This document shows positions 11,807-35,986 of a DNA stretch of 41,103 nucleotides, in pieces. The position numbers and the translations under genes were made by a program. Under the pieces are notes generated by a model, which did no database searches, was not told where the DNA came from, and saw only the letters and a list, made by a program, of their open reading frames with translations. Each line of letters begins with the position of its first letter. Within the stretch, counting starts at the first letter, position 1. The DNA lies in the NCBI GenBank assembly GCA_001785115.1, contig MFSU01000039.1:1-41103 (forward strand), written 5' to 3'. The DNA comes from Candidatus Muproteobacteria bacterium RBG_16_65_34 (GTDB lineage Bacteria > Pseudomonadota > Gammaproteobacteria > Acidiferrobacterales > Sulfurifustaceae).

Positions 11807-11907
11807 ATCCGGAAAAATATTTGCCCGCGGTTCCGGCGGCGGCGACATCGCGTGCAGGCGGGGCGTGCGGTGCGATGCGCCGTAGGGTTGGGTGGGAGGC
11901 GAGAAAC

Positions 11908-13007: not shown

Positions 13008-13358
13008 GAGGCGCAAAGTTTAACTTGAAACTTGTAACTGCTTCTTTGATTTGCCTCCAGATCATCCCAGCATCGTTGCCCGGACTCTCGGGCACCGTCG
13101 CGCCAGGCCGCGGCGCTACAGGGTTAGGGTTTTTGTGCCGATATATCCCAGTTGGGGGTCTGATTGCGGCTTCCGGGCGGCGTCGGCGCCGGCCGGCGCA
13201 TTTGTGCGGCGGATGCCGGTGCGCGGGCCCCGGAGTGCCTCAGCGGGAAAGGCACGGGTTTTGCGCTCCTCAGAATACAGGGGTTTCTACGGCTTTTCGT
13301 TTTTCGCGCGGAAAAACGCGCCATGCGCCCGTCATCGGGCGCCATCCGAGGGTTATGC
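13008..13358 (+). other. Leader region of TonB receptor 1 with hairpins
   Basis: This 351-nt stretch before the receptor has no convincing gene. It holds an 8-bp hairpin (13298-13305 with 13311-13318), then a 7-bp hairpin (13325-13331 with 13336-13342) that ends 5 nt before the GAGGG ribosome-binding site. A further possible stem is at GTGCC ... GGCAC. I do not recognise a cobalamin, c-di-GMP (GEMM) or other known riboswitch core. A regulated 5' leader is possible but unproven. Confidence 0.35.
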
Positions 13359-15383
13359 ATGAGACGAACGCATCGCTGTGCTTTTCCGCCGTTTTCGGAC
13401 CGTAACCGCCGGGTTGCCTGCCGGCGGGCTTTAGCCGCGTCGCTCCTGATTGTGGCGACGGCCGCGCAGGCCGCGCCGGCCGATCTCACCGAGCTCTCGC
13501 TCGAGCAACTGCTCGGTCTCGAAGTGGTGAGCGCCTCGCGGTTTCCCCAGAAGCGCAGCGAAGCGCCGTCGGCCGTGACCGTGATTACGGCCGCCGACAT
13601 CAAGACCTACGGCCACCGCACGCTCGCCGACATCCTGCGCAGCGTGCGCGGGCTGCACGTGACCAACGACCGCAACTACAGCTACCTCGGCGCGCGCGGT
13701 TTCGGGCGCACCGGCGATTACAACGGGCGCATCCTGCTGCTCGTGGACGGTTACCGCATCAACGAAAACGTTTACTACTCGGCGTTCATCGGTCAGGAGT
13801 TCCTCGTGGACGTGGATATGATCGAGCGCGTCGAGTTCGTCCCCGGTCCCGGTTCGGCGCTCTATGGCAACAACGCCTTCTTCGGCGTGCTGAACGTAAT
13901 CACCAAACGCGGCCGGGATGTCAACGGCATCGAGCTGTCGGCGGAGGCGGGCGCTTTCGGTGCGTCCAAGGGGCGGTTGACGTACGGCCAGAGCGCCGAG
14001 GACGGCGCGGACCTGCTGCTGTCGGCGAGCGGTTACGACCGCCGCGGCGACAACCTCTACTTCCCGGAGTTCGACAGCCCCGCAACGAACAACGGCGTGG
14101 CCCAGGGACTCGATGACGAGCGTCACGGCAGCCTGTTCGCCAAGCTCGCGAACAACGGCTTCACGCTCCATGCGGCGCAGGTGCGGCGCACCAAGGGCGT
14201 GCCGACGGCGTCGTATTGGCAGGTGTTCAACGATCCGCGCAGCCGTACCTACGATGCCGAGTCGCTGGTGGGTCTGGCGTATGAAGCCGCCTACGCGCCG
14301 AAGGTGGATGTCGCCGCGCGGCTCTATTACAACCAGTACGACTACTGGGGCGACTACGTCTACGACAACGGAGCGGGCGGCACCTACGTGAACCGCGACG
14401 AGGGAAACGGCGCCTGGTGGGGCGGCGAGTTGAAGCTCGTGCACCGCGCGTTCGAGGCGCACAAGCTCGTGGCCGGCGTCGAGTACCAGCGCGACAACCG
14501 CCAGGACCTCTATAACGCCGATCTCGACCCGACCGTCGTCAATCTCGACGAGCGCCACAGCGGCACGCGCGAGAGCGTGTATGCGCAGGACGAGTACACG
14601 CTGCGCGCGGACCTGCTGCTCAGCGCCGGGCTGCGGCACGAGCGGGCCACGATCGGCGGCGACACGACGAACCCGCGCGTGGCGCTCATCTACAAGGCGA
14701 CCGAGGAGTCCACCTTCAAGGCGATCTACGGCACGGCGTTCCGGGCGCCGAACGTCTATGAGCTCTACTACGCCGCGCTCGCCACGGGGATGAAGGCGAA
14801 CCCGGATCTCAAGCCGGAGGAGATCGCCACCCGCGAGCTCGTGTGGGAGCGCCAGTTCGGTCCCAAGACGCGGCTCACCGTGGCCGCGTTCGACAACCAC
14901 ATCAGCAACCTCATCGCCGCGGTCACCGATCCGGCCGACAGCATGCTGGTGTTCGAGAACGTCGCCAGCGCGCATGCCCGCGGGCTCGAGGTCGAGGGCG
15001 AGCGTATCCACGACTCCGGGCTGCGCTGGCGCGCGAGCTACTCGCTGCAGCGCGCCGAGGACCTGGCGACCGGCGAGCGGCTGGTCAACTCGCCGCGCCA
15101 GCTCGCCAAGCTCAACCTCTCGGCGCCGGTGGCGGGTGTGCGCGCCGGCCTCGATGTGCAGTACACCGACAACCGCCGCACGCTCGCGGGCGAGACCGGC
15201 GGATATACGGTGACGAATCTTACGGTTGTGACCGAATCGCTTGCGAAGGGGATCGAGGCCTCGGCGAGCGTCTACAACCTGTTCGACAAGGCCTATGTCT
15301 ATCCGGCGGGGGAGGAGCATTCGATGGACGTGCTGCGGGAGGACGGGCGCAGTTGGCGCCTGAAGCTCAATTATCGTTTCTGA
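13359..15383 (+). CDS. TonB-dependent outer-membrane receptor 1
   Basis: This is a 674-residue TonB-dependent transducer or receptor. The signal peptide is about residues 1-38 (basic, then ALAASLLIVATAAQA). It is followed by LTELSLEQLLGLEVVSASR and a plug domain starting SEAPSAVTVITAADIKTYGHRTLADIL, with the DGYRINENV and VPGPGSALYGNNAFFGVLNVIT plug signatures. The 22-strand barrel contains FRAPNVYELYY and NPDLKPEEIATRELVWE, and it ends with the terminal aromatic NYRF. This is the Cir/FyuA/BtuB-like class, and the ligand is not deducible. ATG 13359 has GAGGG at 6-nt spacing. Longer frames from 13164 are not protein-like. A YfiR-like gene follows after 7 nt and a GGDEF-EAL gene after that, so the receptor probably feeds a c-di-GMP circuit. 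It is a paralogue of 23394-25355. Confidence 0.93.
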   Translation: MRRTHRCAFPPFSDRNRRVACRRALAASLLIVATAAQAAPADLTELSLEQLLGLEVVSASRFPQKRSEAPSAVTVITAADIKTYGHRTLADILRSVRGLHVTNDRNYSYLGARGFGRTGDYNGRILLLVDGYRINENVYYSAFIGQEFLVDVDMIERVEFVPGPGSALYGNNAFFGVLNVITKRGRDVNGIELSAEAGAFGASKGRLTYGQSAEDGADLLLSASGYDRRGDNLYFPEFDSPATNNGVAQGLDDERHGSLFAKLANNGFTLHAAQVRRTKGVPTASYWQVFNDPRSRTYDAESLVGLAYEAAYAPKVDVAARLYYNQYDYWGDYVYDNGAGGTYVNRDEGNGAWWGGELKLVHRAFEAHKLVAGVEYQRDNRQDLYNADLDPTVVNLDERHSGTRESVYAQDEYTLRADLLLSAGLRHERATIGGDTTNPRVALIYKATEESTFKAIYGTAFRAPNVYELYYAALATGMKANPDLKPEEIATRELVWERQFGPKTRLTVAAFDNHISNLIAAVTDPADSMLVFENVASAHARGLEVEGERIHDSGLRWRASYSLQRAEDLATGERLVNSPRQLAKLNLSAPVAGVRAGLDVQYTDNRRTLAGETGGYTVTNLTVVTESLAKGIEASASVYNLFDKAYVYPAGEEHSMDVLREDGRSWRLKLNYRF

Positions 15384-15390
15384 GGAAGGC

Positions 15391-15915
15391 ATGCGCCTCA
15401 ACGCACGGATCGCCACCGGACTGCTCGGGCTTGCGCTCGCCGCGCCGGCCGCGGCGGCGTACGCCGAGCGCGTCCCCGAGTACGAGCTCAAGGCGGCGCT
15501 GCTCTACAACCTGACGCACTTCGTCGAGTGGCCGGAAGGCCGCAACCGGTCCTTCAACGTCTGCGTCGTGGGCGAGGATCCGTTCGGCGCGGTCGCCGGC
15601 GCGCTGGCGACGAAGACTGTCAACGGCAAGCCGATCGCCGTGCGCCGCGCCGCCGTCTCGCCCGAGCTCAAGAGCTGCCAGATCCTGTTCGTCGCCGCCT
15701 CGGAGGCCGACAGCCTTGGGCCGATACTCGAGGCGGTGAAGGGTCAGCCGGTGCTCACGGTGGCCGATGCCGACGGGCCCGCGCGCCGCGGCGCCGTCGT
15801 CACGCTCGCGCTCGAGGGGCCGCGGATCGCCTTCGACATCGACGCCACCACCGCGCGCACCGCCGGGCTCAGCATCAGCTCGAAGCTCTTGCGCCTGGCG
15901 CGGACCGTCTACTGA
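15391..15915 (+). CDS. YfiR-family (DUF4154) periplasmic protein
   Basis: This is a 174-residue periplasmic protein. The signal peptide is about residues 1-25 (LLGLALAAPAAAAYA). The YfiR core begins EYELKAALLYNLTHFVEWPEG, the family hallmark. It continues with FNVCVVGEDPFG, LKSCQILFV and ISSKLLRLAR. In Pseudomonas, YfiR binds the periplasmic domain of the diguanylate cyclase YfiN and inhibits it. Two cysteines (58 and 96) match the spacing of one conserved YfiR disulfide, and the second disulfide pair is absent. It lies between the TonB receptor (7 nt upstream) and a YfiN-like enzyme (8 nt downstream), so it is very likely the periplasmic regulator of that enzyme. Confidence 0.93.
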   Translation: MRLNARIATGLLGLALAAPAAAAYAERVPEYELKAALLYNLTHFVEWPEGRNRSFNVCVVGEDPFGAVAGALATKTVNGKPIAVRRAAVSPELKSCQILFVAASEADSLGPILEAVKGQPVLTVADADGPARRGAVVTLALEGPRIAFDIDATTARTAGLSISSKLLRLARTVY

Positions 15916-15923
15916 GGGCCGCG

Positions 15924-17996
15924 ATGCCGACGCTGCACGAAAAGTTCCGCGACCTGCCGATCCGCCACAAGCTCGGGGCGATCAACCTCGTCACGACGGG
16001 GCTGGCACTGTGCCTCGCGACCGCGGTCCTGATCGTGACCGAGTTCTTCTCCTACCGGCAGACGCTGCTCGAGGACGTGCGCGTGCAGGCGGCGATGATC
16101 GGCGAGAACAGCGCCGCGGCGCTCGTGTTCAACGACGCGCGCGGTGCGCAGGAGATTCTGAGCGGGCTCGCCGCCTCGCCGAGCGTCGTCCAGGCGGCGG
16201 TATTCGACGCGCGCGGGACGCTGCTCGCGGTCTACCGGCGGGCGGGCACCAAGGCGATGCCCCCGGCCCAGCCCGACCCCGACGGCGATCGCGTTACCTG
16301 GCGGCGCCTGGAGGTGTTTCACGGCGTGCGCGTGAAGGGCGAGCGCACCGGCACCGTCTATGTGCACGCCGACCTCGATAAACTCTACGCGCGCATCCTG
16401 TGGTACGCCGTGCTGGTGACCGTGGCGGTGCTGGCGGCGCTCGCGGCGGCCCTGCTGCTGCTCGGGCGGTTGCAGCACGGCATCACCGGTCCGCTCATGC
16501 GGCTGGTCGGGATCATGCGCGAGGTCTCGCAGACCAAGAACTACGCCGCGCGCGCCGCGGTCGATTCGCGCGACGAGGTCGGGGCACTCGCCTCCGGCTT
16601 CAACGCGATGTTGATCCAGATCGAGGGCCATCAGCGCGATCTGACCCAGGAGCTTCAGGAGCGCAAGCGCGCCGAGCAGCGGCTCGACTATCTGGCGCAC
16701 TACGACACGGTCACGCACCTGCCGAACCGGCACTTCTTCAACGAGAAGCTCAAGCTCGCCATCCCCCTGGCGCTGGGCACCGGGAATCACGCGGCGCTGC
16801 TGTTCATCGATCTCGACAACTTCAAGATCGTCAACGACACGCTCGGCCACCAGATCGGCGACCGGCTCCTGAAGAGCGTCGCCGAGCGCCTGGGCGCCTC
16901 GCTGCGGCGCGGCGACATGATCTGCCGCATCGGCGGCGATGAGTTCGCCGTGATCCTCGAGGGTCTGGGGTCGCGCGACGATGCGAGCATGGTGGCGCAG
17001 AAGCTGCATCACTCGCTGTCGCAGGTGTTCGTGCTCGACACGCACGAGATCTTCGTGAGCGCGAGCATCGGCATCAGCGTCTGCCCGGACGACGGCACCG
17101 AGAGCGATACGCTCCTGCGCCACGCGGACACGGCGATGTATTACGCCAAGGAGCGCGGCAAGAACAACTTCCAGTACTTCCAGGCGGAGATGACGGGCAA
17201 GGTGCTCAAGCGCCTGACGCTCGAAACCCACCTGCGCCGCGCGCTCGAACGCGAGGAGTTCACGCTGTATTACCAGCCGCAGTACGACTTGAAGACCCGG
17301 GGCATCGTCGGCGTCGAGGCGCTGCTGCGCTGGCGGCACCCGGAGCTCGGTGTGGTCAACCCGGGCGAGTTCATTCCGGTGGCGGAGGAGACCGGGCTCA
17401 TCGTGCCGATCGGCGAGTGGGTGCTGCGTACCGCGTGCCGCCAGTGGAGTACGTGGAAGGCGACGGTGGGCGCCGTGCCGGTCGCGGTCAACGTCTCGGG
17501 GCGGCAGTTCCAGGAGGACAGGCTCGTGGACCTGGTGCTCGAGATCGTGGCCGAGACCGGGATCGAGCCCTCGCAGCTCACGCTCGAGCTGACCGAGAGC
17601 ACCCTCATGGACAACTCCGAAACGATGCTGGAAGAGCTCCGGCGCTTCGAGCGCGCCGGCATCCAGCTCTCGATCGACGACTTCGGTACCGGCTACTCGT
17701 CCATGAGCTACTTGACGCGCTTCCCGGTCAACACGCTCAAGATCGACCGTAGCTTCGTGCGCGATATTCCGGGCGACGCCGACGACGTGGCCATCGCCAA
17801 GACGATCATCGCCATGGGCGAGAGCCTCAATCTCAAGATCGTCGCCGAAGGCGTGGAAAATCTGGAGCAGGTGAACTTCCTGCAGGCCTACCCGAGCGTT
17901 GCGGTGCAGGGCTACTACTTCAGCCGCCCGGTGCCGGTGGAGGCGCTCACGGCGCTGCTGCAGGAGCAGCAGGCGGGCGCGGCGCGCGCCGCGTGA
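15924..17996 (+). CDS. Membrane GGDEF-EAL protein with CHASE8 and HAMP (YfiN-like plus EAL)
   Basis: This is a 690-residue inner-membrane c-di-GMP enzyme. TM1 is about 18-42. A periplasmic CHASE8-type sensor follows (ENSAAALVFND, SPSVVQAAVFD). TM2 is about 161-181, then HAMP to about 235. The GGDEF domain has an intact GGDEF (337-341) and I-site R328-x-x-D331. The EAL domain has EALLRW (465), [35 protein letters not shown] and QGYYFSRP, so all metal and catalytic residues are present. Both synthesis and hydrolysis of c-di-GMP are therefore possible, and the cyclase side can be product-inhibited. Pseudomonas YfiN has the same front half but no EAL. It is third in a TonB receptor-YfiR-cyclase operon. 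Its stop is followed by inverted repeats. Confidence 0.95.
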   Translation: MPTLHEKFRDLPIRHKLGAINLVTTGLALCLATAVLIVTEFFSYRQTLLEDVRVQAAMIGENSAAALVFNDARGAQEILSGLAASPSVVQAAVFDARGTLLAVYRRAGTKAMPPAQPDPDGDRVTWRRLEVFHGVRVKGERTGTVYVHADLDKLYARILWYAVLVTVAVLAALAAALLLLGRLQHGITGPLMRLVGIMREVSQTKNYAARAAVDSRDEVGALASGFNAMLIQIEGHQRDLTQELQERKRAEQRLDYLAHYDTVTHLPNRHFFNEKLKLAIPLALGTGNHAALLFIDLDNFKIVNDTLGHQIGDRLLKSVAERLGASLRRGDMICRIGGDEFAVILEGLGSRDDASMVAQKLHHSLSQVFVLDTHEIFVSASIGISVCPDDGTESDTLLRHADTAMYYAKERGKNNFQYFQAEMTGKVLKRLTLETHLRRALEREEFTLYYQPQYDLKTRGIVGVEALLRWRHPELGVVNPGEFIPVAEETGLIVPIGEWVLRTACRQWSTWKATVGAVPVAVNVSGRQFQEDRLVDLVLEIVAETGIEPSQLTLELTESTLMDNSETMLEELRRFERAGIQLSIDDFGTGYSSMSYLTRFPVNTLKIDRSFVRDIPGDADDVAIAKTIIAMGESLNLKIVAEGVENLEQVNFLQAYPSVAVQGYYFSRPVPVEALTALLQEQQAGAARAA

Positions 17997-20440: not shown

Positions 20441-20545
20441 GGGTAGGCGCGCCTTGGGAAAACGTATCCGCAGTCTGTCACAAAACCCCCGATGCGCAAA
20501 AACATCCACGCGCGCCACGGGATTAAGCAAGCTTATTAATATTAC

Positions 20546-20614
20546 TTGACGCAAAGGCGCAAAGAAAAACGGGGAAAACAGACCGCAAAAAATACCTTTG
20601 CGTCTCTGCGTCAA
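20546..20614. repeat. Inverted-arm element of 8-nt units upstream of hypF
   Basis: Arms 20546-20564 and 20596-20614 are 19-nt inverted repeats with two mismatches (units acgcaaag and gcgcaaag). It sits between the first SPW gene stop (20656) and the hypF start (20440), both on the minus strand, so it is in a tandem intergenic gap. Confidence 0.9.
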
Positions 20615-21728: not shown

Positions 21729-23207
21729 CTACAGTGCAGCCTCGATCCGTTCGCAAAGCGTTTTCAGGATCTTGATGCGCGCGTAGCGCTTGTCGTTCGC
21801 CTCAACGAGCGTCCACGGGGCGATCTCGGTGCTCGTGCGGTCGACCATGTCGCACACGGACCTTTCGTACAGCCCCCATTTCTCGCGGTTGCGCCAGTCT
21901 TCCTGCGTGATCTTGAAGCGTTTGAACGGCGTCTGCTCGCGCTCCTTGAAGCGCCGGAGCTGCTCCTCCGGGCTTATGTGCAGCCAGAACTTCGCCAAGA
22001 CGATGCCGTGGCGCGTGAGTTGCTCCTCGAAGTCGTCGATCTCGCGGTAGGCGCGCATCCAGTCGTATTCGGAGCACAGGTTTTCGATGCGCTCCACCAG
22101 CACGCGCCCGTACCACGAGCGATCGAAGATCGCGATATGGCCGCGGCGCGGGAGCCGGCGCCAGAACCGCCAAAGGTAAGGCTGCGCCAGCTCCTCGTCG
22201 CTCGGCGCGGCGATGGCATGCACGTCGTAATAGCGCGCATCGAGCGCGCCGGTCACGCGCCGGATGGCGCTGCCCTTGCCGGCGGCGTCCATGCCTTCGA
22301 ACACCGCAACGACGGAAGTGTCCTTGAAGCGCTTGTGGCGCGTCAGCAGACTCAACCGCCCCTGGTATTTCTCGAGCTGCTTTTCGTAATCGTTTTTGTC
22401 CAGGCGCAGCGCGAGATCGAGCGTCTTGAGCAGATTGCGGTTGTCCGCCGCGGCGGGCGCAAGCGGCGCGGAAAGCGCGCGCTGCGGCGGGGTCTCCTGG
22501 TCCAGTCGCTGGCGCAGCGCGGCGAGCAGCGTCTTGCCGACCATGAGGTTGCGATAACGCGGGTCGGTTCCCTCGACGATGTGCCACGGCGCCTCGGCGG
22601 TGCTCGTGAGCCGCAAGGCGCGCTCGGAGACCCGGTAGAACTTGTCGTAGCGCTTGTAGTGCTCCCAATCGCGCTCGGTGGCGCGCCAGCGGGTCTTGGG
22701 GTCCTTCTCGAGCTTCTTGAGTCGGCGCTTCTGCTGATCCTTCGAGAGATGGAACCAGAACTTGAAAATCAGCGCGCCCTCGTCGGCGAGCATGCGCTCG
22801 AACCGCACGTTCTCCACCATCGCCTGATCGAGCTCGGCGTCGCCCGTCGCGCCGAAGACGCGCCCGAGGATCGGCAACGTGTACCAGGAGCCGAAGAAAA
22901 CGCCGATCCGCCCCTTGGGTGGAAGCGCGCGCCAGATGCGCCACATGGGCGGATACTGCCGCTCTTCCTCGGTAAGCTCGCGCAGCGCGTGCACCTGGAT
23001 GTGGCGCGGATCCATCCACTCCTTCAGTAGATTCACCGTCTCGCCCTTGCCCGCGCCGTCCACGCCGTTAACGAGGATCAGCACCGGAAGGCGCGCCGCG
23101 CGCAAAAGGTCGTATTGGGCGCCGAGCAGCGCCTCGCGCAGCCGCGGGACCTCCCGTTCGTAGGTTGCCTTGTCGACGGTGTGCCCCACCTCGGCGGATT
23201 CGAACAT
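21729..23207 (-). CDS. pap: Polyphosphate:AMP phosphotransferase (two-domain PPK2)
   Basis: This 492-residue protein has two fused PPK2 domains. Domain 1 has Walker A GVDGAGKGE (48-56) and the lid segment around FGSWYTLPILGR. Domain 2 has Walker A GMDAAGKGS (305-313), FDRSWYGRVLVERIE, and KFWLHISPEEQLRRFKERE. Two-domain PPK2 enzymes (class II) mainly use polyphosphate to phosphorylate AMP to ADP. The C-terminal domain has the more typical catalytic set (FDRSWYGR), and the N-terminal one is altered at the matching site (FFGSWYTL). The enzyme links polyphosphate stores to nucleotide charge in the cytoplasm. It is divergent from TonB receptor 2, and the 186-nt gap holds a 19-bp inverted repeat. 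Confidence 0.93.
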   Translation of the reverse strand: MFESAEVGHTVDKATYEREVPRLREALLGAQYDLLRAARLPVLILVNGVDGAGKGETVNLLKEWMDPRHIQVHALRELTEEERQYPPMWRIWRALPPKGRIGVFFGSWYTLPILGRVFGATGDAELDQAMVENVRFERMLADEGALIFKFWFHLSKDQQKRRLKKLEKDPKTRWRATERDWEHYKRYDKFYRVSERALRLTSTAEAPWHIVEGTDPRYRNLMVGKTLLAALRQRLDQETPPQRALSAPLAPAAADNRNLLKTLDLALRLDKNDYEKQLEKYQGRLSLLTRHKRFKDTSVVAVFEGMDAAGKGSAIRRVTGALDARYYDVHAIAAPSDEELAQPYLWRFWRRLPRRGHIAIFDRSWYGRVLVERIENLCSEYDWMRAYREIDDFEEQLTRHGIVLAKFWLHISPEEQLRRFKEREQTPFKRFKITQEDWRNREKWGLYERSVCDMVDRTSTEIAPWTLVEANDKRYARIKILKTLCERIEAAL

Positions 23208-23253: not shown

Positions 23254-23323
23254 GCCCCGCCACTAAATCGACGGTGCCGCCGTGCCGGTTTGTAGTCCCA
23301 ATGTGTCGATTTAGTGGCGGGGC
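23254..23323. repeat. Perfect 19-bp inverted repeat with 32-nt loop
   Basis: 23254-23272 and 23305-23323 are exact inverted copies. They enclose 32 nt that include a small CGGTGCCGCCGTGCCGG inner dyad. The sequence is unrelated to the tandem-unit elements elsewhere in the window. It lies in the divergent gap between pap and TonB receptor 2. It may be a minimal MITE, solo terminal repeats of an excised insertion sequence, or an operator or attenuator. No target-site duplication is evident. Confidence 0.85.
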
Positions 23324-23393: not shown

Positions 23394-25355
23394 ATGCCCA
23401 GAAAAATCATGCTCGCCTTCGCGGCGGCGTTCGCGTTTCCGGTCGAGGCGGTTGGGGGACGCGGCACGGGCGGGGAGGAAATCCTGTTCCAGGACATCCC
23501 GGCCGTCTTCGGTGCCTCCCGGTACGAGCAAAAGTTGAGCGAGGCCCCGGCCGCGGTCACGATCGTCACCGCCGACGAGATCAAGCGCTATGGGCACCGC
23601 ACGCTCGCCGACATCCTGCGCAGCGTGCGCGGCTTCTACACCGCCAACGACCGCGCCTACACCTATGCCGGCGTGCGCGGGTTCGGGCGTCTGGGCGATT
23701 ACAACACGCGGGTGCTGCTGCTCATCGACGGCTACCGCACCAACGACAACATCTTCGACCAGGCCTTCATCGGGACCGAGTCCCTCGTCGACGTGGACAC
23801 CATCGACCGGGTGGAGGTGATCCACGGACCGGGCTCCTCGCTCTACGGCACCAACGCCTTCTTCGCCACGATCAACGTCATCACCCGGCGCGGCCGCGAC
23901 TTAAAGGGGGCGGAGGTGTCGGCCGAGGGCGGAAGCTTCCGCAGCAACCGGGGCCGCGTGAGCTACGGCGACAAGTACGAAAACGGCGCCGAGATGCTGC
24001 TCGCCGCGTCGTACTACGACAGCGCCGGCCGGTCGCTCTATTTCGCCGAGTTCGACGACCCCGCCACGAATAACGGCGTGGCCGAGAACGTCGACGCCGA
24101 GCGCTACCGCAACTTCTTCGGCAAGCTCTCCGCCGGCGACTACACGCTGACCGCGGGCTACGTCGAGCACAACAAGGCGCTGCCGACCGGGGCGTTCGAC
24201 ACCGTGTTCAACGATCCGGGCACGCGCTTGCGCGACCCGGTGCTCGGCTTCGTCAACGTCAAATACGAGCGCGCGATCGCCGCCGATGCGCAGCTGATGC
24301 TGCGTCTGGGGCAGAACCGCTATCGCTACCAGGGCAGCTACGTCTACCCCACGGAGACCCAGCGCGAGGACGACTACGGCGCGTGGTGGACGGCCGAGGC
24401 GGTCTACACCGCGCGGCCCGCGCGCGGCCATCGGCTCGTCGCGGGCGCGGAGTACCAGGGCAACACCCGCCAGGACCAGAGCACCGTGAACGAGGCCGGC
24501 GTCCTGCTCGACGACCGGCGGGATTCGGCGCGCTCGGCGCTGTACGTGCAGGACGAGCTGCGGCTGCGCGAGGACCTTCTCGTCAATGTCGGCGCGCGCG
24601 GCGACCGTTACGAGTCTTTCGGTGGCACCGTCAACCCGCGCCTCGGCCTGCTGTACGCCGCGAGCGCGCAAACGACCGTGAAGCTGCTCTACGGCGAGGC
24701 CTTCCGCGCGCCGAATGTCTTCGAGATCTACTACAGCGACGGCGCAGTCACGCAGAAGGGCAACCCGGACCTCAAGCCCGAGACCATCGCCACGAGCGAG
24801 CTGGTGGTCGAGCAGGACCTGGGCGGGGGCCTGCGCGGCGCGGCCTCGCTTTATCGCTACACGATCCGCGACCTCATCACGCAGCAGGTGGACCCGAACG
24901 ACGGCCTGCTCGTGTTTCGCAACGTCGAGCGCGTAACGGCCGAGGGGATCGAGCTCGAGCTCGGCGGCTGGTTCGCGGCGCGCTTCGAGGGTCGCGCGAG
25001 CTACGCCTACCAGGCGAGCACGGACGCCGGGACGGGCGAGCGCCTGGTGAACTCGCCGCGCGCGCTTGCGAAGCTTAACGTGAGCACGCCGTTCATCGAG
25101 CGGCGGCTGCGCGGCGGCGTGGAGCTTCAGTACACCGGGCCGCGGCTGACCCGTACGCGCGCGGAGACCGGCGGTTTCACCGTGGTCAATCTCACGCTGC
25201 TCGCGCGCAACTGGGTCAAGGGGCTCGAGTTGTCCGCCTCCCTCTACAACGTCCTCGACAAGGCGTACGCCGACCCCGTGAGCGACAGCTACGCGCCGGA
25301 GACGATCGCGCAGGACGGCCGCCGCTATCGTCTCAAAGCGGCGTATGAGTTTTGA
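23394..25355 (+). CDS. TonB-dependent outer-membrane receptor 2
   Basis: This is a 653-residue receptor. The signal peptide is MPRKIMLAFAAAFAFPVEAVG, followed by LFQDIPAVFGASRYEQKLSE and the plug (AVTIVTADEIKRYGHRTL, DGYRTNDNI, IHGPGSSLYGTNAFFATINVIT). The barrel has FRAPNVFEIYY and NPDLKPETIATSELVVE and ends in the aromatic YEF. It is clearly paralogous to the receptor at 13359, including 38 identical consecutive nucleotides in the plug region. ATG 23394 has a CGGAGGGA ribosome-binding site. The next gene, a periplasmic ABC_sub_bind protein, starts within 10 nt, then a hybrid kinase and a GGDEF-EAL regulator. Receptor and signalling genes therefore form one operon. Ligand unknown. Confidence 0.93.
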   Translation: MPRKIMLAFAAAFAFPVEAVGGRGTGGEEILFQDIPAVFGASRYEQKLSEAPAAVTIVTADEIKRYGHRTLADILRSVRGFYTANDRAYTYAGVRGFGRLGDYNTRVLLLIDGYRTNDNIFDQAFIGTESLVDVDTIDRVEVIHGPGSSLYGTNAFFATINVITRRGRDLKGAEVSAEGGSFRSNRGRVSYGDKYENGAEMLLAASYYDSAGRSLYFAEFDDPATNNGVAENVDAERYRNFFGKLSAGDYTLTAGYVEHNKALPTGAFDTVFNDPGTRLRDPVLGFVNVKYERAIAADAQLMLRLGQNRYRYQGSYVYPTETQREDDYGAWWTAEAVYTARPARGHRLVAGAEYQGNTRQDQSTVNEAGVLLDDRRDSARSALYVQDELRLREDLLVNVGARGDRYESFGGTVNPRLGLLYAASAQTTVKLLYGEAFRAPNVFEIYYSDGAVTQKGNPDLKPETIATSELVVEQDLGGGLRGAASLYRYTIRDLITQQVDPNDGLLVFRNVERVTAEGIELELGGWFAARFEGRASYAYQASTDAGTGERLVNSPRALAKLNVSTPFIERRLRGGVELQYTGPRLTRTRAETGGFTVVNLTLLARNWVKGLELSASLYNVLDKAYADPVSDSYAPETIAQDGRRYRLKAAYEF

Positions 25356-25363
25356 CGACGGTC

Positions 25364-26317
25364 ATGACCATCGTGCGGCTGCGCCGGCTTGCGCTGACCG
25401 CGGTGGCCCTCGCCGGCGCCGCCGGTCCCGCGGCCGCACAGCCCGCGCCCGATAGCCGGGAAACCCGCATCGCCGTCCTGGTGAGCCAGGAGGCCCCGCC
25501 CTACCGCCAGGCGCTCGCGGGCTTCACGCGCGCGCTCGAGCGCCGCGGGCTCAAGGTCTCGGTGCGCGTGGGTTCCCTCGAGGGCGACGGCGCCAAGGCG
25601 GCGCAGGCGCTCGCGGCGGCGCGGCCCGAGCAGGCGCAACTCATCCTCACGTTGGGGACGCTCGCCACCCAGGCGGTCGCGGCGAGGAAGGATCTCACGG
25701 CGCCCGTCGTCACGGGCCTCGTGCTCAGGGTCTCCGACCTCGGCGGCGCGAATGCCACCGGGGTCGTGCTCGAGTTTCCGGTCGAGACGGAGCTTCGCTG
25801 GTTGCAGCGCTTCTTCCCCGGCCGGCGCGCCGTCGGGGTGCTGTATCACCCGGACGAAAACCGCAGCCGCATCGAGGCCGCGGTCAGGACGGCGCAGGCG
25901 CTCGGACTGACGCTGGTTGCGCGCAGCGTGGAGCGCGCGCGCGACCTGCCCGATGAGCTGGAGTCGCTGGCCAACCGGGCGGACCTGCTCTGGGGGGTGG
26001 CCGACTCGGTGGTGCTCACGCCGCAAACCGCGAAGCCCATTTTGCTCTTCTCGTACCGCAACCGCATTCCGTTCGTGGGCCTGTCCCAATCCTGGGTGAA
26101 GGCGGGCGCGCTGTACGCGCTTGACCGCGATTACGACGACATCGGCGCGCAGTGCGCCGAGCTCGCGTTCAAGGTGCTTCGCGGGACGCCGCCATCGGCG
26201 CTGCCTCCGGAGCCGCCGCGCAAGCTGGTGTATTCGATCAATCTGCGCACCGCGCGACACATGAAGCTCGAGATCCCCGACGCGCTCCTCAAGGGCGCGC
26301 AGGAAGTGGTGGACTAG
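25364..26317 (+). CDS. Periplasmic ABC_sub_bind-family protein (PF04392 type)
   Basis: This is a 317-residue exported protein with an N-terminal signal sequence (LALTAVALAGAAGPAAAQ). Two Rossmann-like lobes are visible: TRIAVLVSQEAPPYRQALAGF ... LILTLGTLATQAVAARKDLTAPVVTGLVL, and FFPGRRAVGVLYHPDENRSR ... LLFSYRNRIPFVGLSQSWVKAGALYALDRDY. The fold and motifs match the ABC transporter substrate-binding PF04392 family. No permease or ATPase gene is nearby. Instead it is placed between a TonB receptor and a membrane histidine kinase, the place YfiR takes in the sister module. It is probably a ligand sensor for the kinase (inference). An in-frame TTG at 25352 overlaps the receptor stop, and ATG 25364 is the alternative preferred here. 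Neither has a strong ribosome-binding site. Confidence 0.88.
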   Translation: MTIVRLRRLALTAVALAGAAGPAAAQPAPDSRETRIAVLVSQEAPPYRQALAGFTRALERRGLKVSVRVGSLEGDGAKAAQALAAARPEQAQLILTLGTLATQAVAARKDLTAPVVTGLVLRVSDLGGANATGVVLEFPVETELRWLQRFFPGRRAVGVLYHPDENRSRIEAAVRTAQALGLTLVARSVERARDLPDELESLANRADLLWGVADSVVLTPQTAKPILLFSYRNRIPFVGLSQSWVKAGALYALDRDYDDIGAQCAELAFKVLRGTPPSALPPEPPRKLVYSINLRTARHMKLEIPDALLKGAQEVVD

Positions 26318-26326
26318 GAGGACGCG

Positions 26327-29187
<2,861 letters not shown>

Positions 29188-29191
<4 letters not shown>

Positions 29192-31311
29192 ATCCGAGGG
29201 AAGCAACGGACGCGCAGCCCCTGGTGCTGGTCGCCGACGACGACTCGGCCACGCGCTTTCTCATTCACAAGGCCTTGGAGCAGGCGGGTCTTTCCGTGCT
29301 CGACGCCGAGAACGGCGCGCAGGCGCTCACGCTGTTCGAGGCGCACCGGCCGCACATCGTGCTGCTCGATGTCATGATGCCGCAGATGGACGGTTTCGCC
29401 GCGTGCGCCGCCATCCGCCGCCTGCCGCGGGGCGCGACCGTGCCGATCCTGATGCTCACCGGGCTCGACGATCTCGACTCGATCAAGCGCGCCTACGAGG
29501 CCGGCGCGACCGACTTCGCCGCCAAGCCCATCAACTGGCTGGTCTTGAGCCACCGCGTGCGCTACCTGCTGCGCATGGGCCGGGTGCTCGAGGATCTCGC
29601 GGCGAGCGAGGCCCGGCTCGCGGCGGCGCAGCGCATCGCCCACCTCGGCAACTGGGAGTGGAACTTGAGGACCGACGCCTGGTATTGGTCGGATGAACTC
29701 TACCGCCTGCTCGGTTACCAGCCGCGCGAGATCATGCCGGGCATCGAGCGCTTCCTCGAGCGGCTGCATCCCGAGGATCGCGAGGCGGTGGCGCAGATCA
29801 TCGAGTGCAGCCGGCGCGAGCAGGGCGCCTACGGCGTCGAGTTCCGCGTGCGGCTGCCGGACGGCGCCGTGCGGTATCTGCACGCGCAGGGCGAGGTGGT
29901 GGGCGATGAGCGCGGCGATCCCGCGAAGCTTTCCGGAACCATCCAGGACGTCAGCGCGCGCAAGCAGGCCGAGGACCAGATCAGCTTTCTCGAAAACTAC
30001 GACAAACTCACGGGCCTGCCGAACCGCGTGCGGTTCAAGGAGCGTCTGGATCAGGCGCTGGCGACGGCGAAGCGCCAGACGCAGAAGCTCGCCGTGCTGG
30101 TGCTCGATCTCGACCGCTTCAAGCGCGTCAACGACACCATGGGCCACAGTCTGGGCGATCGGCTGGTGCAGGCGGTGGCCAAGCGCATCGAGGCGTGCGT
30201 GAGCGAGGATTCGCCGCCGCGCGTGGGCGCCTTCGCGCGCCTGGGCGGGGACGAGTTCAGTCTGCTGCTGCCCGACCTCAAGCACCCGGCGGATGCGGCG
30301 GCGGTTTCGCGCCGCATCCTCGAGGCGCTGTCGAAGCCGTTTCGGCTGGAGGCACAGGAGGTCTTCATCACGGCGAGCGTCGGCATCGGCCGCTATCCCG
30401 AGGACGGCTCCGACTGTGAGGCGCTGCTCAAGAACGCCGACACCGCCATGTACCACGCCAAGGGCGCGGGCGGCAACGGCTATCGGCTCTACGACCACTC
30501 CATGAACGCCGCGGCGTTCGAGCGCCTGACGCTGGAGAACGGCCTGCGGCGCGCGCTCGAGCGCGGCGAGTTCCTGCTCTATTATCAGCCCCAGATCGAG
30601 ATCCAGAGCGGTGCGATCGCCGGCGCCGAGGCGCTGCTGCGCTGGCGGCATCCGGAGCTCGGGCTCGTGCCGCCGGACCGCTTCATCCCGCTGGCGGAGG
30701 AGACCGGCCTCATCCTGCCGATCGGCGAGTGGGTGCTGCGCACGGCCTGCGCGCAGGCGTTGGCGTGGCGGCGGGCGGGCCTGCCGCCCGTGCGCGTGGC
30801 GGTGAATCTCTCGGCGCGCCAGTTCCGCGATGAGACCCTGGCCGAGAGCATCGCGCAGGCGCTGAGGCTCGCCGAGCTCGATCCGCAGGGGCTCGGGCTC
30901 GAGATCACGGAGAGCGTGATCATGCAGAACGCCTCCGGCACCGTGAACACGCTCCAGGAGCTCAAGCGCATGGGGCTTTCCATCTCCGTGGACGACTTCG
31001 GCACCGGGTATTCCTCGCTCAGCTACTTGAAACGCTTTCCCATCGACGTGCTCAAGATCGACCGCTCCTTTGTCCGCGACCTCGCCACGAATCCCGACGA
31101 CGCCGCGATCGCCTCCGCGATCATCGCCATGGCCAAGAGCTTGAAGCTCGACACCGTCGCCGAAGGCGTCGAGACCGAGGAGCAACTGGCGATCTTGCGC
31201 CAATACGGCTGCCGGCTGGTGCAGGGGTTTTTATTCAGCAAGGCGTTGCCGGCGGAAGAGTTCGAGGTGTTGCTGCGCGAGCAGAAATGGCGCCGCGCTG
31301 CGAGCGAATAA
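29188..31311 (+). CDS. Response regulator REC-PAS-GGDEF-EAL
   Basis: This is a 707-residue cytoplasmic c-di-GMP enzyme. REC covers about 10-130, with acidic DDDS (17-20) and phospho-acceptor Asp61 in [15 protein letters not shown] domain of the PAS_3 type follows ([10 protein letters not shown] ... LHPEDREAV, about 150-260). The GGDEF motif is intact (353-357), but the I-site position reads PRVG, so product inhibition is probably lost. The EAL domain is complete (EALLRW at 481, [41 protein letters not shown]). The start is TTG 29188, overlapping the kinase stop as TTGA, with GGGAGAAGGG upstream. The frame stays open much further upstream but is antiparallel noise inside the kinase gene. Phosphorylation by the hybrid kinase would set its c-di-GMP activity. 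Confidence 0.93.
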
Positions 31312-31316
31312 GAATG

Positions 31317-31452
31317 GACAGGATTAACAGGATTTCTCAGGATTTACAGGATTAAGCCAAAAAGCTTTTTGGCTGTTGTTCTGTTACTGATCGCTTTTAA
31401 TTTTTTTAAAGTTTTAATCCTGTAAATCCTGAGAAATCCTGTTAATCCTGTC
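31317..31452. repeat. 38-bp perfect inverted repeat of 9-nt units with nested palindrome
   Basis: 31317-31354 and 31415-31452 are exact inverted copies over 38 nt, made of acaggatta-type units. The spacer starts with a perfect 20-nt palindrome (31355-31374, agccaaaaag and its inverse) and goes on with T-rich DNA. It lies between the convergent ends of the REC-GGDEF-EAL gene and hypX, and its right arm touches the hypX stop. Base pairing would make a very long hairpin in either transcript, a likely bidirectional terminator. Confidence 0.97.
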
Positions 31453-33173
31453 TATTGAATTTTTGCTGGTGTGTTTGCGCGCCGGTGGCCGGCGAGGTGC
31501 AGCGGTGTCCAGGCGGGGAGGCGCTTGAAGACGAACTCGTAGCGCGCCACGTGGTAGCTCGGGTCGAAGCCGTAGAAGTTGCGCTTCATGTGCTCGAGCT
31601 CCTCGGCGCGGTAGGCCTCCAGAGGTTTCTCGGTTTCGTCGTGCGCTCGCGCCGCGCGCTTGGCGGCGAGCCGCTCGCCGAGGGCCGGATCGCGCGCGAG
31701 CGTCTCGGCCCGCTCGACGATCCGGCGGCCGAAATCGGCGAGGTCGTCGCCGAAGCACTCGTCGATAAGCCCGAGCCGCTTTGCGGCTGGGGCGCTCAGG
31801 GGCAGCCGGTTCTCCGTGATCGCGAGCGCCCGCTCGCGCCCGATACGCTTCGGCAGCAGGTATGTCCAATACTCCGAGCCGTAGAGGTTACCCATACCCT
31901 TGTAGTGCGGGTTGAGCACCACACCGCGGCGCGCGCACACCCGATCGGCGGCGAGTGCGAGGAACGCGCCGCCGGCGCCGGCGTTGCCCTGGAGCGCGGC
32001 GATCGTGAGGTGGCTGTCGGTCGTGAGGATGGCGCGCGCGAGATCGTTCATGGCGTTGATGTTGCGCCAGGACTCGTCCGCGGGGCTGTCCGCCGCCTCG
32101 ATGACGTTCAAGTGAATGCCGTTCGACCAGAAGTCGGGGCCGCCCACGAGCGCGATGACGCGCGTCGGGCGGCCGCGGGCGTATTCATACGCCGCGCGCA
32201 GGCGCGCGCACTGCCCGGTGCTCATGGCGCCGTTGTAGAAATCGAAGTGCAGGTAACCGACGGCGTTGCGCTCCTCGTATCGGATTTCGCGGAAGGTGCG
32301 AAGCGGCGCGGGGGCGTGGAGCGGCGCCGGGATTTCCGGAACGCCCGAGAGCGCCGTGCCGAGAACTGTCGAGGCGGGCAATTTGAGGGCCGGCTCGCCG
32401 GGGATGATCGGCTTGAGATGGCCGATCCAGACCGCGCCGTCGCGCGTCGCGCGGCAGATGGCGCCGTCGCGCCTCGCGATCACCGCGCCCGGTTCGCCGC
32501 GCAGCCCATCTTCCTCGCAGGCGTCGTAGAGCCGGCAGCGCCGGCCGAGAAGCTCGTCCTCGACGCCGGGCGCGCCGTCGGCGGCGCGGATTTTCTTCAG
32601 CACCGTGTCGGTGTCGTCGCGGAGCCAGTCGATCGCGCGATCGCACTGGCGTATGAGCGGATGCCGGCGGCCGCGCACGTCCGCTCGGCCGTAGTCGAGC
32701 GGCTCGGGCGCGAAGATCTTATGTTGCAGCCGCTCGAGCGCCTGGAGCACCGCCGCGACTGCCGCCTCGGTGACCTCGTTGCGGTAGAGGCTGCTCTTGC
32801 GCGCCGCCCGCATCGGGAAGCGGGCCTCGGCCCACACATCGCCCGCGTCCATCTCGGCGTCGGCCTGCAGTACTGTCACGCCCCACTCGCGTTCGCCCCG
32901 CAGGATCGCCCAGTCGAGCGCCGACGGCCCGCGGTCGCCCTGGATGCCCGGATGCACCACGAGGCAGAGATGGTTACGCCACACGGCTTCCGGGATGGCG
33001 CGCCTGAGATAGGGCGCGACGATCACGTCCGGCTCGTAGAGCCGCGCCGCCTCGATCGTCACGGCGTCGTTGATGTCGAGCTCGATCGAGACCTCGTGCC
33101 CGCGCTCGGTGAGCTCGGCGTAGAGACGCTGGGCGAGGCTGTTGAAGCTGTGGGTGAGAAAAAGGATGCGCAC
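31452..33173 (-). CDS. hypX: Hydrogenase maturation protein HypX (HoxX)
   Basis: This 573-residue protein has two domains. The N-terminal domain (about 1-260) is formyl-transferase-like: RILFLTHSFNSLAQ, ELDINDAVTIEAA and the pocket VVHPGIQGDRGPSALDWAI. The C-terminal domain (about 275-550) is enoyl-CoA hydratase-like: GGPDFWSNGIHLNVIEAAD, LQGNAGAGGAFLALAADRV and NPHYKGMGNLYGSEYWTYLLP. HypX makes CO from N10-formyl-tetrahydrofolate through formyl-CoA, supplying the CO ligand of [NiFe] hydrogenases under aerobic conditions. Start GTG 33173 gives the standard MRILFLTH. Longer frames enter the repeat element upstream. Its last residues and stop touch the right arm of the 38-bp inverted repeat. 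It follows hypD on the same strand after a 153-nt gap filled by a repeat. Confidence 0.95.
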   Translation of the reverse strand: MRILFLTHSFNSLAQRLYAELTERGHEVSIELDINDAVTIEAARLYEPDVIVAPYLRRAIPEAVWRNHLCLVVHPGIQGDRGPSALDWAILRGEREWGVTVLQADAEMDAGDVWAEARFPMRAARKSSLYRNEVTEAAVAAVLQALERLQHKIFAPEPLDYGRADVRGRRHPLIRQCDRAIDWLRDDTDTVLKKIRAADGAPGVEDELLGRRCRLYDACEEDGLRGEPGAVIARRDGAICRATRDGAVWIGHLKPIIPGEPALKLPASTVLGTALSGVPEIPAPLHAPAPLRTFREIRYEERNAVGYLHFDFYNGAMSTGQCARLRAAYEYARGRPTRVIALVGGPDFWSNGIHLNVIEAADSPADESWRNINAMNDLARAILTTDSHLTIAALQGNAGAGGAFLALAADRVCARRGVVLNPHYKGMGNLYGSEYWTYLLPKRIGRERALAITENRLPLSAPAAKRLGLIDECFGDDLADFGRRIVERAETLARDPALGERLAAKRAARAHDETEKPLEAYRAEELEHMKRNFYGFDPSYHVARYEFVFKRLPAWTPLHLAGHRRANTPAKIQ

Positions 33174-33195
33174 GATTAAGTCTTGAAAAGCTATT

Positions 33196-33308
33196 GTCCG
33201 CAGATTACGCAGATTTTCGCAGATTAAACCCAAAAAACAGGTAACCGCAGATGAACGCAGATAAACGCGGTGAAATTCATCTTTTGAAATCTGCGTAAAT
33301 CTGCGGAT
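33196..33308. repeat. Inverted-arm element of 10-nt units between hypD and hypX
   Basis: The outer arms (33196-33217 and 33286-33308) are imperfect inverted copies of ccgcagatttacgcagat-type units. A second, same-direction arm (33241-33272, aaccgcagatgaacgcag type) is nested inside, like the one at 6908. It fills the gap between the hypD stop and the hypX start. Confidence 0.88.
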
Positions 33309-33326: not shown

Positions 33327-34475
33327 TTAACCGGTGGACGCCGCCGCCCGCTGCTCGATCTCGTGCCGCCGGTAGCGGTAGTAGGCGCTGCACGCGCCCT
33401 CCGGGGACACCATGCACGAGCCGATCGGGTCGCTCGGCGTGCACACGGTGCCGAAGATCTTGCAGTCGTTCGGCTGCTTCACGCCGCGGATGATGGCGCC
33501 GCACTCGCAGGCCTGGTTCTCGGGCACCGGCTGCTCGACGAGCGCAAAGCGCGTCTCGGCGTCGAAGGTGGCGTAGGGCCGCTTGAGGCGCAGGCCGCTG
33601 TACGGCACGACGCCCAGGCCGCGCCACTCGAAGCGGCGGCGCAGCTCGAACACCTCGGCCACCAGCGCCTGGGCCTTGACGTTGCCCTCGCGCGTCACGC
33701 CGCGCGTGAACTCGTTCTCGACCTCCGCGCGGCCCTCGTTCAACTGGCGCACGAGCATGCGCACCGCCTGCAGCACGTCGAGCGGCTCGAAGCCGGCGAT
33801 CGCCACCGGCCGCCGGTACTCGCGCGCGAAGTACTCGTAGGGCCGGCTGCCGATGATCGTGCTCACGTGCGCGGGTCCGATGAAGCCGTCCACGCGCACG
33901 AGCCCGAGACGGCGCACCTCGGGCGAGTCGAGGATCGAGCGGATCGCCGAGGGCGTCAACACGTGGTTGCAGAACACGCTGAAGTTCTCGAGCCCGAGGC
34001 GCTGCGCCTCCCGGATCGCGACCGCCGTCGGCGGGGTCGTGGTCTCGAAGCCGATGGCGAAGAAGACGATTTGCTTGTCCGGGTTGGCCTGCGCGATCGC
34101 GAGTGCCTCGGCGCAGGAGTAGACCATGCGCACGTCGTGGCCCTGCGCGCGGCTCTTCTGGAGGCTGCGCTTGCGCGAGCCCGGCACGCGCAGCATGTCA
34201 CCGTAGCTGCACAGGATTACATCGGCGCGCGCGGCGAGCTCGATCGCGAGATCGAGGCGGCTCACCGGCAGCACGCACACCGGGCAGCCGGGCCCGTGCA
34301 CCAGGCGGACGTTCGGCGGCAGGAGATCCTGTACCCCGTAGCGGAAAATGGCGTGCGTGTGGCCGCCGCAGAACTCCATCAAATAGTAATCGCGCGCCGG
34401 GCTCGCCTCGGCCGCCAAGGCCGCGGACAGCGCCCGGGCGAGGCGCCGGTCGCGGAACTCACTGAGGTATTTCAC
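33327..34475 (-). CDS. hypD: Hydrogenase maturation protein HypD
   Basis: This is a 382-residue iron-sulfur scaffold that, with HypC, assembles the Fe(CN)2CO group. Conserved motifs are FCGGHTHAIFRYG (active Cys), VHGPGCPVCVLP, GFETTTPPTA, DGFIGPAHVSTIIG and GFEPLDVLQA. The C-terminal [4Fe-4S] cysteines lie in ACECG, NDCKIFG, TVCTPSDP and IGSCMVSPEGAC. The start codon is GTG (34475) with GGAGCG upstream, and it overlaps the end of hypC by 17 nt, so the two are translationally coupled. All catalytic cysteines appear present. Confidence 0.96.
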   Translation of the reverse strand: MKYLSEFRDRRLARALSAALAAEASPARDYYLMEFCGGHTHAIFRYGVQDLLPPNVRLVHGPGCPVCVLPVSRLDLAIELAARADVILCSYGDMLRVPGSRKRSLQKSRAQGHDVRMVYSCAEALAIAQANPDKQIVFFAIGFETTTPPTAVAIREAQRLGLENFSVFCNHVLTPSAIRSILDSPEVRRLGLVRVDGFIGPAHVSTIIGSRPYEYFAREYRRPVAIAGFEPLDVLQAVRMLVRQLNEGRAEVENEFTRGVTREGNVKAQALVAEVFELRRRFEWRGLGVVPYSGLRLKRPYATFDAETRFALVEQPVPENQACECGAIIRGVKQPNDCKIFGTVCTPSDPIGSCMVSPEGACSAYYRYRRHEIEQRAAASTG

Positions 34476-34728: not shown

Positions 34729-34824
34729 GTTCCAAGTTCAAAGTTCAAAGTTTCAGGCTTATGGGACTGACCGAAATCGTGGGGCCGTTACGCCAACTTT
34801 GAACTTTGAACCTGGAACTTTGAA
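34729..34824. repeat. Inverted-arm element of 7-nt units (gttcaaa family), partly coding for the HypB tail
   Basis: The left arm 34729-34757 and the right arm 34792-34824 are imperfect inverted copies built from gttcaaa/gttccaa units. The right arm and spacer are read as the last 21 codons of hypB. The left arm lies just upstream of the hypC start. The same unit family forms the N-terminal codons of hypE at 12903-12931. Confidence 0.9.
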
Positions 34825-35547: not shown

Positions 35548-35561
35548 ATATAGATGATCCC

Positions 35562-35644
35562 AATGCGGAGTTCGGAATGCGGAGTGCGGAATATCAACGA
35601 GGAAAACATCTTTATTCCGCATTCGCCATTCCGCATTCCGCATT
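35562..35644. repeat. Inverted-arm element of 7-nt units (atgcgga family), partly coding for the HypA tail
   Basis: Arms 35562-35593 and 35613-35644 are 32-nt inverted repeats with about five mismatches, built of ttccgca/tgcggaa units around a 19-nt spacer. The right arm is read as the last ten codons of hypA. The left arm ends 14 nt before the hypB start. Confidence 0.92.
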
Positions 35645-35986
35645 TGATTCCAGTTCCACGCAGACGAGCAACAGCTCATCGCCGCTGATAAGCCGGGTAT
35701 GCCAATCCCCGCACGCGCTGCACAGCAGCCGGTTCGCCGCCGCTTCGTTTTCGGCGCCGCAGGTGTCGCAGCGCACCCGGATCGGCAGGCGCTCGATCAC
35801 GAGCTCGGCACCGTCGGCCACGGTCCCGGCGCGCGCCAGCGGGAAGGCCTCGGCGAGCAGATCGGGCTCGACACCCGAGAGCGGTCCCAGGCGCAGCACG
35901 ATGCGGCGCACCGCGGCCGCGTCGTGCCCGGCGGCGACCCGCGCGACCTCGCGCAGCATCGCCTGACAGACCGAGAGCTCATGCAC
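35612..35986 (-). CDS. hypA: Hydrogenase nickel metallochaperone HypA
   Basis: This 124-residue protein binds Ni through its N-terminus (MHEL, His2) and Zn through CDTC ... CSAC, and passes Ni to the hydrogenase with HypB. The family core (SVCQAMLREV, GPLSGVEPDLLAEAF, VIERLP) is complete and ends at LLLVCVELES. The final ten residues NAECGMANAE come from a heptamer repeat arm that also supplies the stop codon. The start is GTG 35986, and the first 8 nt overlap the 35-codon hypC remnant (GTGCATGA), so its translation is coupled to that ORF. Confidence 0.95.
   Translation of the reverse strand: MHELSVCQAMLREVARVAAGHDAAAVRRIVLRLGPLSGVEPDLLAEAFPLARAGTVADGAELVIERLPIRVRCDTCGAENEAAANRLLCSACGDWHTRLISGDELLLVCVELESNAECGMANAE

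What the first reader, a model, noticed from the sequence alone, without database searches (positions are those of the whole stretch)
23394..31311. Sister module: TonB receptor-ABC_sub_bind-hybrid kinase-REC-GGDEF-EAL
The second operon has a paralogous receptor, but the YfiR slot is taken by an ABC_sub_bind protein with no transporter, and the direct cyclase is replaced by a full phosphorelay (His313, Asp602, Asp745, His894) that ends in a c-di-GMP regulator with Asp61. Together the two modules suggest a general three-layer design, with an outer-membrane receptor, an interchangeable periplasmic sensor and a membrane transducer feeding c-di-GMP, that I do not know as a described system.
Basis: partly seen in the sequence, partly recalled or inferred. 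Interest (0 to 1): 0.7.

Follow-up and report, generated by a model that had tools for sequence, protein, structure and literature searches.

The report
Outer-membrane receptor to c-di-GMP relay
Four overlapping genes encode an outer-membrane receptor, a periplasmic binding protein, a membrane kinase and an enzyme that makes or breaks the messenger c-di-GMP, and surveys of hundreds of genomes show that this kind of receptor–binding-protein–transducer set is a widespread and largely undescribed way for bacteria to sense things outside the cell.

Summary
A tight four-gene operon (23394-31311, +) encodes a TonB-dependent receptor, a PF04392 solute-binding protein (SBP), a HAMP-HisKA-HATPase-REC-REC-Hpt kinase and a REC-PAS-GGDEF-EAL regulator. 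The same operon occurs in one class relative and in an Acidobacteria MAG. 'Interchangeable sensor' needs refining: the SBP comes with its own kinase ectodomain (YfiR partners carry CHASE8, 27/27; SBP partners mostly sCache_4), so the pair is exchanged as a unit. The window's receptor nests inside a YfiR-associated receptor lineage, apart from the main SBP-associated clade. The YfiR half is already recognised in NCBIfam (TOL_0242-0244 type cassette), and SBP-activated kinases and cyclases are known in general. I found no description of the PF04392-TonB version. Ligand, direct contacts and phosphotransfer are untested. Verdict: new variant of a known kind, real and widespread.

The parts
23394..25355 (+). 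TonB-dependent receptor (Plug + beta-barrel, no STN signalling domain)
   Evidence: Pfam PF07715, PF00593; start ATG 23394; nests in a YfiR-associated receptor lineage (AU test)
25352..26317 (+). Periplasmic solute-binding protein, PF04392 ABC_sub_bind, with Sec-like N-terminus; start TTG 25352 or ATG 25364
   Evidence: Pfam PF04392 8.3e-31; PDB relatives 3lkv, 6hni, 3lft; no ABC permease/ATPase found in the operon
26327..29191 (+). Unorthodox hybrid histidine kinase: two TM helices around a ~150-aa periplasmic domain, HAMP-HisKA-HATPase-REC-REC-Hpt; H313, D602, D745, H894
   Evidence: Pfam, residues, TM estimate, ectodomain of the SBP-partner type
29188..31311 (+). Response regulator REC-PAS-GGDEF-EAL, D61, both enzymatic motifs intact; likely output of the relay
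   Evidence: Pfam, residues; 4-nt overlap with the kinase gene; same gene follows the kinase in L035 and L054/L209
31313..31456 (.). 43-nt-arm inverted repeat of a genome-wide dispersed family, behind the operon; includes a terminator-like hairpin 31355-31374
13164..17996 (+). Sister module for comparison: TonB receptor (to 15383), YfiR-like DUF4154 protein (15391-15915), CHASE8-HAMP-GGDEF-EAL protein (to 17996)
   Evidence: Pfam PF13689, PF17152 and others; NCBIfam NF053592 210 bits above cut-off 194, NF053591 119.5 just below 125

Best explanation
This is an import-and-sense relay. The receptor brings (or lets) an unidentified ligand across the outer membrane using TonB energy. The PF04392 protein binds that ligand in the periplasm and docks on the ectodomain of the kinase. 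The kinase signal runs H313 to D602/D745 to H894 and then to D61 of the regulator, changing the balance of its GGDEF (synthesis) and EAL (breakdown) activities and so the cell's c-di-GMP. Shown: the domain anatomy, the intact residues, the tight operon, conservation of the whole set in two distant relatives, and the general coupling of PF04392 genes to transducer genes. Inferred: ligand binding, SBP-ectodomain docking, direction of phosphotransfer, and the effect on c-di-GMP.
For: Anatomy and residues. Same four-gene operon in L035 and L054/L209. Survey of 100 PF04392 loci: 50 kinases and 19 GGDEF/EAL genes directly downstream on the same strand, 3 fusions, 30 receptors directly upstream (26 of them receptor-SBP-kinase), about 10 with ABC genes; about 6.6 receptors per genome, so well under one such adjacency is expected by chance. 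A second class repeats it: 15 of 15 SBPs precede a kinase, and 9 have a receptor directly before them, one of the 9 on a contig-edge fragment. All four PF04392 genes of the window's genome lie beside signalling genes. Kinase ectodomain matches SBP-partner ectodomains at 64.7 bits against 17.8 for YfiR partners. SBP-type activation of kinases and c-di-GMP enzymes is established elsewhere (PMC9602780, PMC11113362). Receptor, SBP and kinase distances co-vary (Mantel r 0.85-0.89).
Against: No interaction, ligand or phosphotransfer data. Over half of the SBP-transducer pairs have no adjacent receptor, so the receptor may be a fellow traveller that supplies something else. Co-variation also follows from common descent. 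In L054 the first receiver has lost its acidic pocket (DDN replaced by AQP), so that receiver at least is not essential there. Only three exact four-gene copies were found.
Confidence: 0.6

Rival explanations
1. The receptor and SBP contact each other, and the receptor passes a conformational signal to the SBP (as YfiB does to YfiR, or FecA to FecR) instead of importing a ligand. The SBP then acts as a switch protein that holds or releases the kinase.
For: The window's receptor belongs to a lineage otherwise paired with YfiR-like proteins. In YfiBNR the periplasmic protein is a repressor sequestered by an outer-membrane protein (PMC4655355, PMC4887326). The sister module in the same window has a YfiR-like protein in the middle position.
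Against: No STN-type signalling domain in the receptor. Many SBP-transducer pairs have no adjacent receptor (36 of 69 have no scored gene upstream), so a receptor relay is not essential to the core. Much of the SBP's C-terminal lobe sequence is invariant across the distant trio, which fits ligand binding.
Confidence: 0.2
2. The SBP serves an ABC importer encoded elsewhere, and the kinase is a nutrient sensor that happens to lie beside it; the c-di-GMP output is a by-product of local gene order.
For: PF04392 proteins of known structure are SBPs of presumed transporters (3lft was solved with Trp). Some loci in the survey do have ABC genes.
Against: Transporter-associated SBPs fall in a different part of the SBP tree, while all 31 receptor-associated ones lie in one large part rich in kinases and cyclases. 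All four PF04392 genes of this genome lie beside signalling genes. SBP-kinase and SBP-GGDEF/EAL fusions exist.
Confidence: 0.1
3. The ligand is tied to [NiFe]-hydrogenase biology (for example a nickel chelate), since both window modules sit among hyp genes and another PF04392-GGDEF/EAL pair follows a hydrogenase operon in this genome.
For: HypE, HypF, a HypX-like protein, HypD and HypB flank the modules on the other strand. In G004 (same family) the YfiR module also lies between hypE and hypF, and an SBP-GGDEF/EAL pair follows the same hydrogenase operon in both genomes.
Against: No hydrogenase gene was found near any other of the surveyed modules, including L035 and L054, so this is at best a lineage-specific ligand or use. 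Gene order alone may reflect a shared genomic island.
Confidence: 0.12

Closest known systems
SBP-activated sensor kinases and c-di-GMP enzymes (LuxP-LuxQ, TorT-TorS, NspS-MbaA, BctC-BctE)
   Same: A periplasmic SBP gene beside the gene of a membrane kinase or GGDEF/EAL protein; SBP docks on the ectodomain
   Different: SBP is PF04392; a TonB receptor gene precedes it; the ectodomain is of an sCache_4-related kind; output through a REC-PAS-GGDEF-EAL regulator. Neither paper consulted (PMC9602780, PMC11113362) mentions TonB
NCBIfam TOL_0242-0244 type cassette (NF053590 receptor, NF053591 YfiR-like, NF053592 kinase)
   Same: TonB receptor - periplasmic protein - membrane transducer; the window's first module is close to it, and the receptors of both modules are distant relatives
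   Different: Second module has PF04392 in place of DUF4154 and a different ectodomain; its receptor scores 145 against a cut-off of 645
YfiBNR of Pseudomonas aeruginosa
   Same: Three envelope layers ending in c-di-GMP
   Different: Outer-membrane part is the lipoprotein YfiB, periplasmic part DUF4154, transducer a CHASE8 cyclase; none of these is in the second module
FecA-FecR-FecI transducers
   Same: TonB receptor at the head of a signalling chain
   Different: No STN domain in the receptor; phosphorelay and c-di-GMP instead of anti-sigma/sigma factor
BarA/GacS-type unorthodox kinases
   Same: HAMP-HisKA-HATPase-REC-Hpt layout and an sCache_4-like ectodomain
   Different: Extra receiver domain, SBP partner, c-di-GMP regulator; 544.6 bits against BarA cut-off 890

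Membership tests
SBP-activated receptor systems (works like) | SBP gene adjacent to gene of a transmembrane kinase or c-di-GMP enzyme | tested here: met
   Window and 69 of 100 PF04392 loci; 15 of 15 in a second class
SBP-activated receptor systems (works like) | Ligand-loaded SBP binds the ectodomain and changes output | not testable with these tools
   Needs protein work; complex prediction not available
ABC importer with PF04392 SBP | ABC permease and ATPase genes with the SBP | tested here: not met
   None found in the operon; none scored by permease/ATPase profiles near the other three PF04392 genes of the genome
YfiBNR | DUF4154 periplasmic protein | tested here: not met
   Module 2 protein is PF04392
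YfiBNR | CHASE8 ectodomain in the transducer | tested here: not met
   No Pfam CHASE8 match; 17.8 bits with YfiR-partner profile against 64.7 with SBP-partner profile
YfiBNR | OmpA-like outer-membrane lipoprotein YfiB | tested here: not met
   Outer-membrane gene is a TonB receptor
NCBIfam TOL_0244 cassette | Receptor above NF053590 cut-off | tested here: not met
   145.2 bits against 645
TonB-dependent transducer (FecA type) | N-terminal STN domain | tested here: not met
   No STN match in Pfam scan
Unorthodox hybrid kinase phosphorelay | HisKA His, receiver Asp, Hpt His all present | tested here: met
   H313, D602, D745, H894
REC-controlled GGDEF-EAL regulator | Receiver Asp plus intact GGDEF and EAL motifs | tested here: met
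   D61, GGDEF 353, EAL 481 and downstream EAL motifs
REC-controlled GGDEF-EAL regulator | Enzymatic activity and which of the two dominates | not testable with these tools
   Needs assay

The most novel reading that the evidence does not exclude
PF04392 proteins in these bacteria are mainly signalling proteins, and they form with TonB receptors a general, modular outer-membrane-to-cytoplasm sensing chain. Receptor lineages can trade one periplasmic protein plus matching ectodomain (YfiR + CHASE8) for another (PF04392 + sCache_4-like), with kinase or c-di-GMP outputs fitted behind.
Probability: 0.5. Interest if true: 0.72.

Novelty: new variant of a known kind. Interest (0 to 1): 0.58.

Why it matters
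TonB receptors are usually read as importers and PF04392 genes are annotated as ABC-transporter parts. If the reading is right, many such genes are misannotated sensors. The two kinds of module offer a natural exchange experiment on how a periplasmic protein and a sensor ectodomain recognise each other, and give a concrete list of systems that may link what the outer membrane takes up to biofilm and motility control.

Tried and rejected
(1) rpoB search to place the MAG taxonomically gave nothing; the class is left unnamed. (3) AlphaFold of the kinase ectodomain from two sequences was too poor to use (mean pLDDT 41.5); profile comparison was used instead. The SBP model (pLDDT 61) finds PF04392 structures first, but with low TM-scores, so only the family assignment is taken from it. 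(4) First idea that the kinase ectodomain is CHASE8 like the sister cyclase, suggested by weak cross-hits, was rejected. (5) hhalign of full N-terminal regions was set aside because shared TM and HAMP parts drive it. (6) The inverted repeats behind both operons looked like a module signature but are a dispersed family with 155 copies. (7) Hydrogenase linkage as a general clue to the ligand was rejected: among the loci looked at it is confined to the window's family. (8) Literature searches for a PF04392-TonB-kinase system returned nothing relevant; the library is open-access only, so absence is not proof.

Full report
What is there. The operon at 23394-31311 is as described. Pfam gives a Plug and barrel receptor, a PF04392 protein, a kinase with HAMP, HisKA, HATPase, two receivers and Hpt, and a regulator with receiver, PAS, GGDEF and EAL. 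The four genes are packed with overlaps or a 9-nt gap. No ABC permease or ATPase gene was found in the operon.

The exact operon recurs. An Acidobacteria MAG contig (L035) and a near-complete class relative (G271: L054, L209) carry receptor, SBP, HAMP-HisKA-REC-Hpt kinase and REC-GGDEF-EAL regulator in the same order, with SBPs 58% and 41% identical to the window's. In L054 the first receiver of the kinase has lost its DDN acidic pocket, while the second receiver, Hpt and regulator receiver keep their key residues. This suggests that the relay runs through the second receiver.

The general association. I searched 281 genomes of the class for PF04392, took 100 loci from the top of the score list, and scored neighbours with profiles built from window proteins and E. 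coli ABC genes. 30 have a TonB receptor directly upstream on the same strand. 69 have a kinase (50) or GGDEF/EAL gene (19) directly downstream, and three more are fused to one. About ten have an ABC context. The list was sorted by score and begins with transporter-type proteins, so the signalling share is if anything understated. The receptor-associated rows of the tree come from 21 different families of the class. Thirty genomes hold 197 Plug genes, about 6.6 each, so receptor adjacency by chance would be well under one in 100 (inference). In a second class of the phylum, 15 of 15 SBPs precede a kinase, and nine have a receptor directly before them. In the window's own genome all four PF04392 genes lie beside signalling genes; three directly precede a kinase or GGDEF/EAL gene, and the fourth follows a receptor with a kinase on the other strand.

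The parallel with YfiR. Of 40 DUF4154 loci, 18 have a receptor directly upstream, five more a receptor downstream, and 26 a kinase or GGDEF/EAL gene downstream. NCBIfam already models such a cassette from Thalassolituus, whose receptor TOL_0244 rises seven-fold on n-C28 alkane (PMC6304351). For c-di-GMP, 25 of 69 PF04392 transducers and 11 of 26 DUF4154 transducers are, or are at once followed by, a GGDEF/EAL gene.

What is exchanged. N-terminal regions of 27 YfiR partners all match CHASE8. Of 70 SBP partners, 39 match sCache_4 and only two CHASE8. A profile of SBP-partner ectodomains made without the window and L054 scores the window's ectodomain at 64.7 bits, against 17.8 for the YfiR-partner profile. 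So the periplasmic protein and its ectodomain change together. On the receptor tree the window's receptor, L035 and L054 form a supported group inside a clade otherwise made of YfiR-associated receptors, apart from a fully supported clade of 28 SBP-associated receptors; holding all SBP-associated receptors together is rejected (AU p about 2e-56; the group was defined by neighbour, not by the tree, but long branches are present). On the SBP tree the trio is likewise separate from the main receptor-associated group (99% SH-aLRT each). The simplest reading is at least two separate pairings of a PF04392-kinase unit with a TonB receptor, one of them in a receptor lineage that also works with YfiR. 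The direction of the exchange is not established.

Mechanism. The favoured reading is import-and-sense: receptor delivers, SBP binds and docks, kinase relays, regulator sets c-di-GMP. It rests on the stability of the SBP-transducer core with or without a receptor, the known behaviour of SBP-activated receptors (PMC9602780, PMC11113362), and the strong conservation of the SBP among distant copies. Direct receptor-to-SBP signalling remains possible. The ligand is unknown; PF04392 relatives of known structure include a Trp-bound protein (3lft), which does not settle it.

Context. Both modules sit on the + strand among hydrogenase maturation genes on the - strand: HypE-like 11908-12927, HypF 18179-20614, HypX-like 31452-33233, HypD 33327-34475, HypB-like 34759-35679, with PPK2 at 21729-23207. 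In G004 of the same family the YfiR module lies between hypE and hypF too. In both genomes an SBP-GGDEF/EAL pair directly follows a [NiFe]-hydrogenase operon ending in the HycI protease. No other surveyed module is near hydrogenase genes, so this is a lineage trait that suggests, weakly, a nickel- or hydrogen-related use there.

Limits. Neighbour calls use profiles iterated on the same loci, and several genomes are close relatives. The literature library is open-access only. No biochemical step has been tested.

Noticed in passing
window 11908-12927, 18179-20614, 31452-33233, 33327-34475, 34759-35679 (all -): Both sensory modules are embedded, on the opposite strand, in a [NiFe]-hydrogenase maturation cluster (HypE, HypF, HypX-like, HypD, HypB); in same-family G004 (L139) the YfiR module is also between hypE and hypF.
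   Followed up: partly
L210 (G000:C46:12000-22000) 152-7713 and L214 (G004) 5749-13609: A [NiFe]-hydrogenase operon (Fe-S/FAD-NAD, small, large subunit, HycI protease) is directly followed by a PF04392 SBP and a GGDEF-EAL gene in two genera of the family; looks like a soluble group-3-type hydrogenase coupled to a c-di-GMP sensor.
   Followed up: partly
window 18016-18111 and 31313-31456; genome-wide: Palindromic repeat CAGGATTTACAGGATTAA: 155 copies (up to 1 mismatch) in the 2.03 Mb MAG, none for the reversed control; inverted pairs directly behind both operons.
   Followed up: partly
window 23254-23272 / 23305-23323: Perfect 19-nt inverted repeat GCCCCGCCACTAAATCGAC with a 32-nt spacer upstream of the receptor; only copy in the window; possible regulator site or mobile-element trace.
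   Followed up: no
L054 5831-8647 (kinase, first receiver): Receiver 1 has lost the DDN acidic pocket in the G271 homologue while receiver 2 and Hpt keep their key residues, hinting that receiver 1 is regulatory and not part of the relay.
   Followed up: no
L057 3230-6058, L131 3688-6087, L113 4113-6041: Natural fusions of PF04392 domains with GGDEF-EAL or with a histidine kinase core, useful templates for the SBP-transducer interface.
   Followed up: no
window 38039-40609: 856-aa protein with Sortilin-Vps10/BNR repeats downstream of the hyp genes.
   Followed up: no
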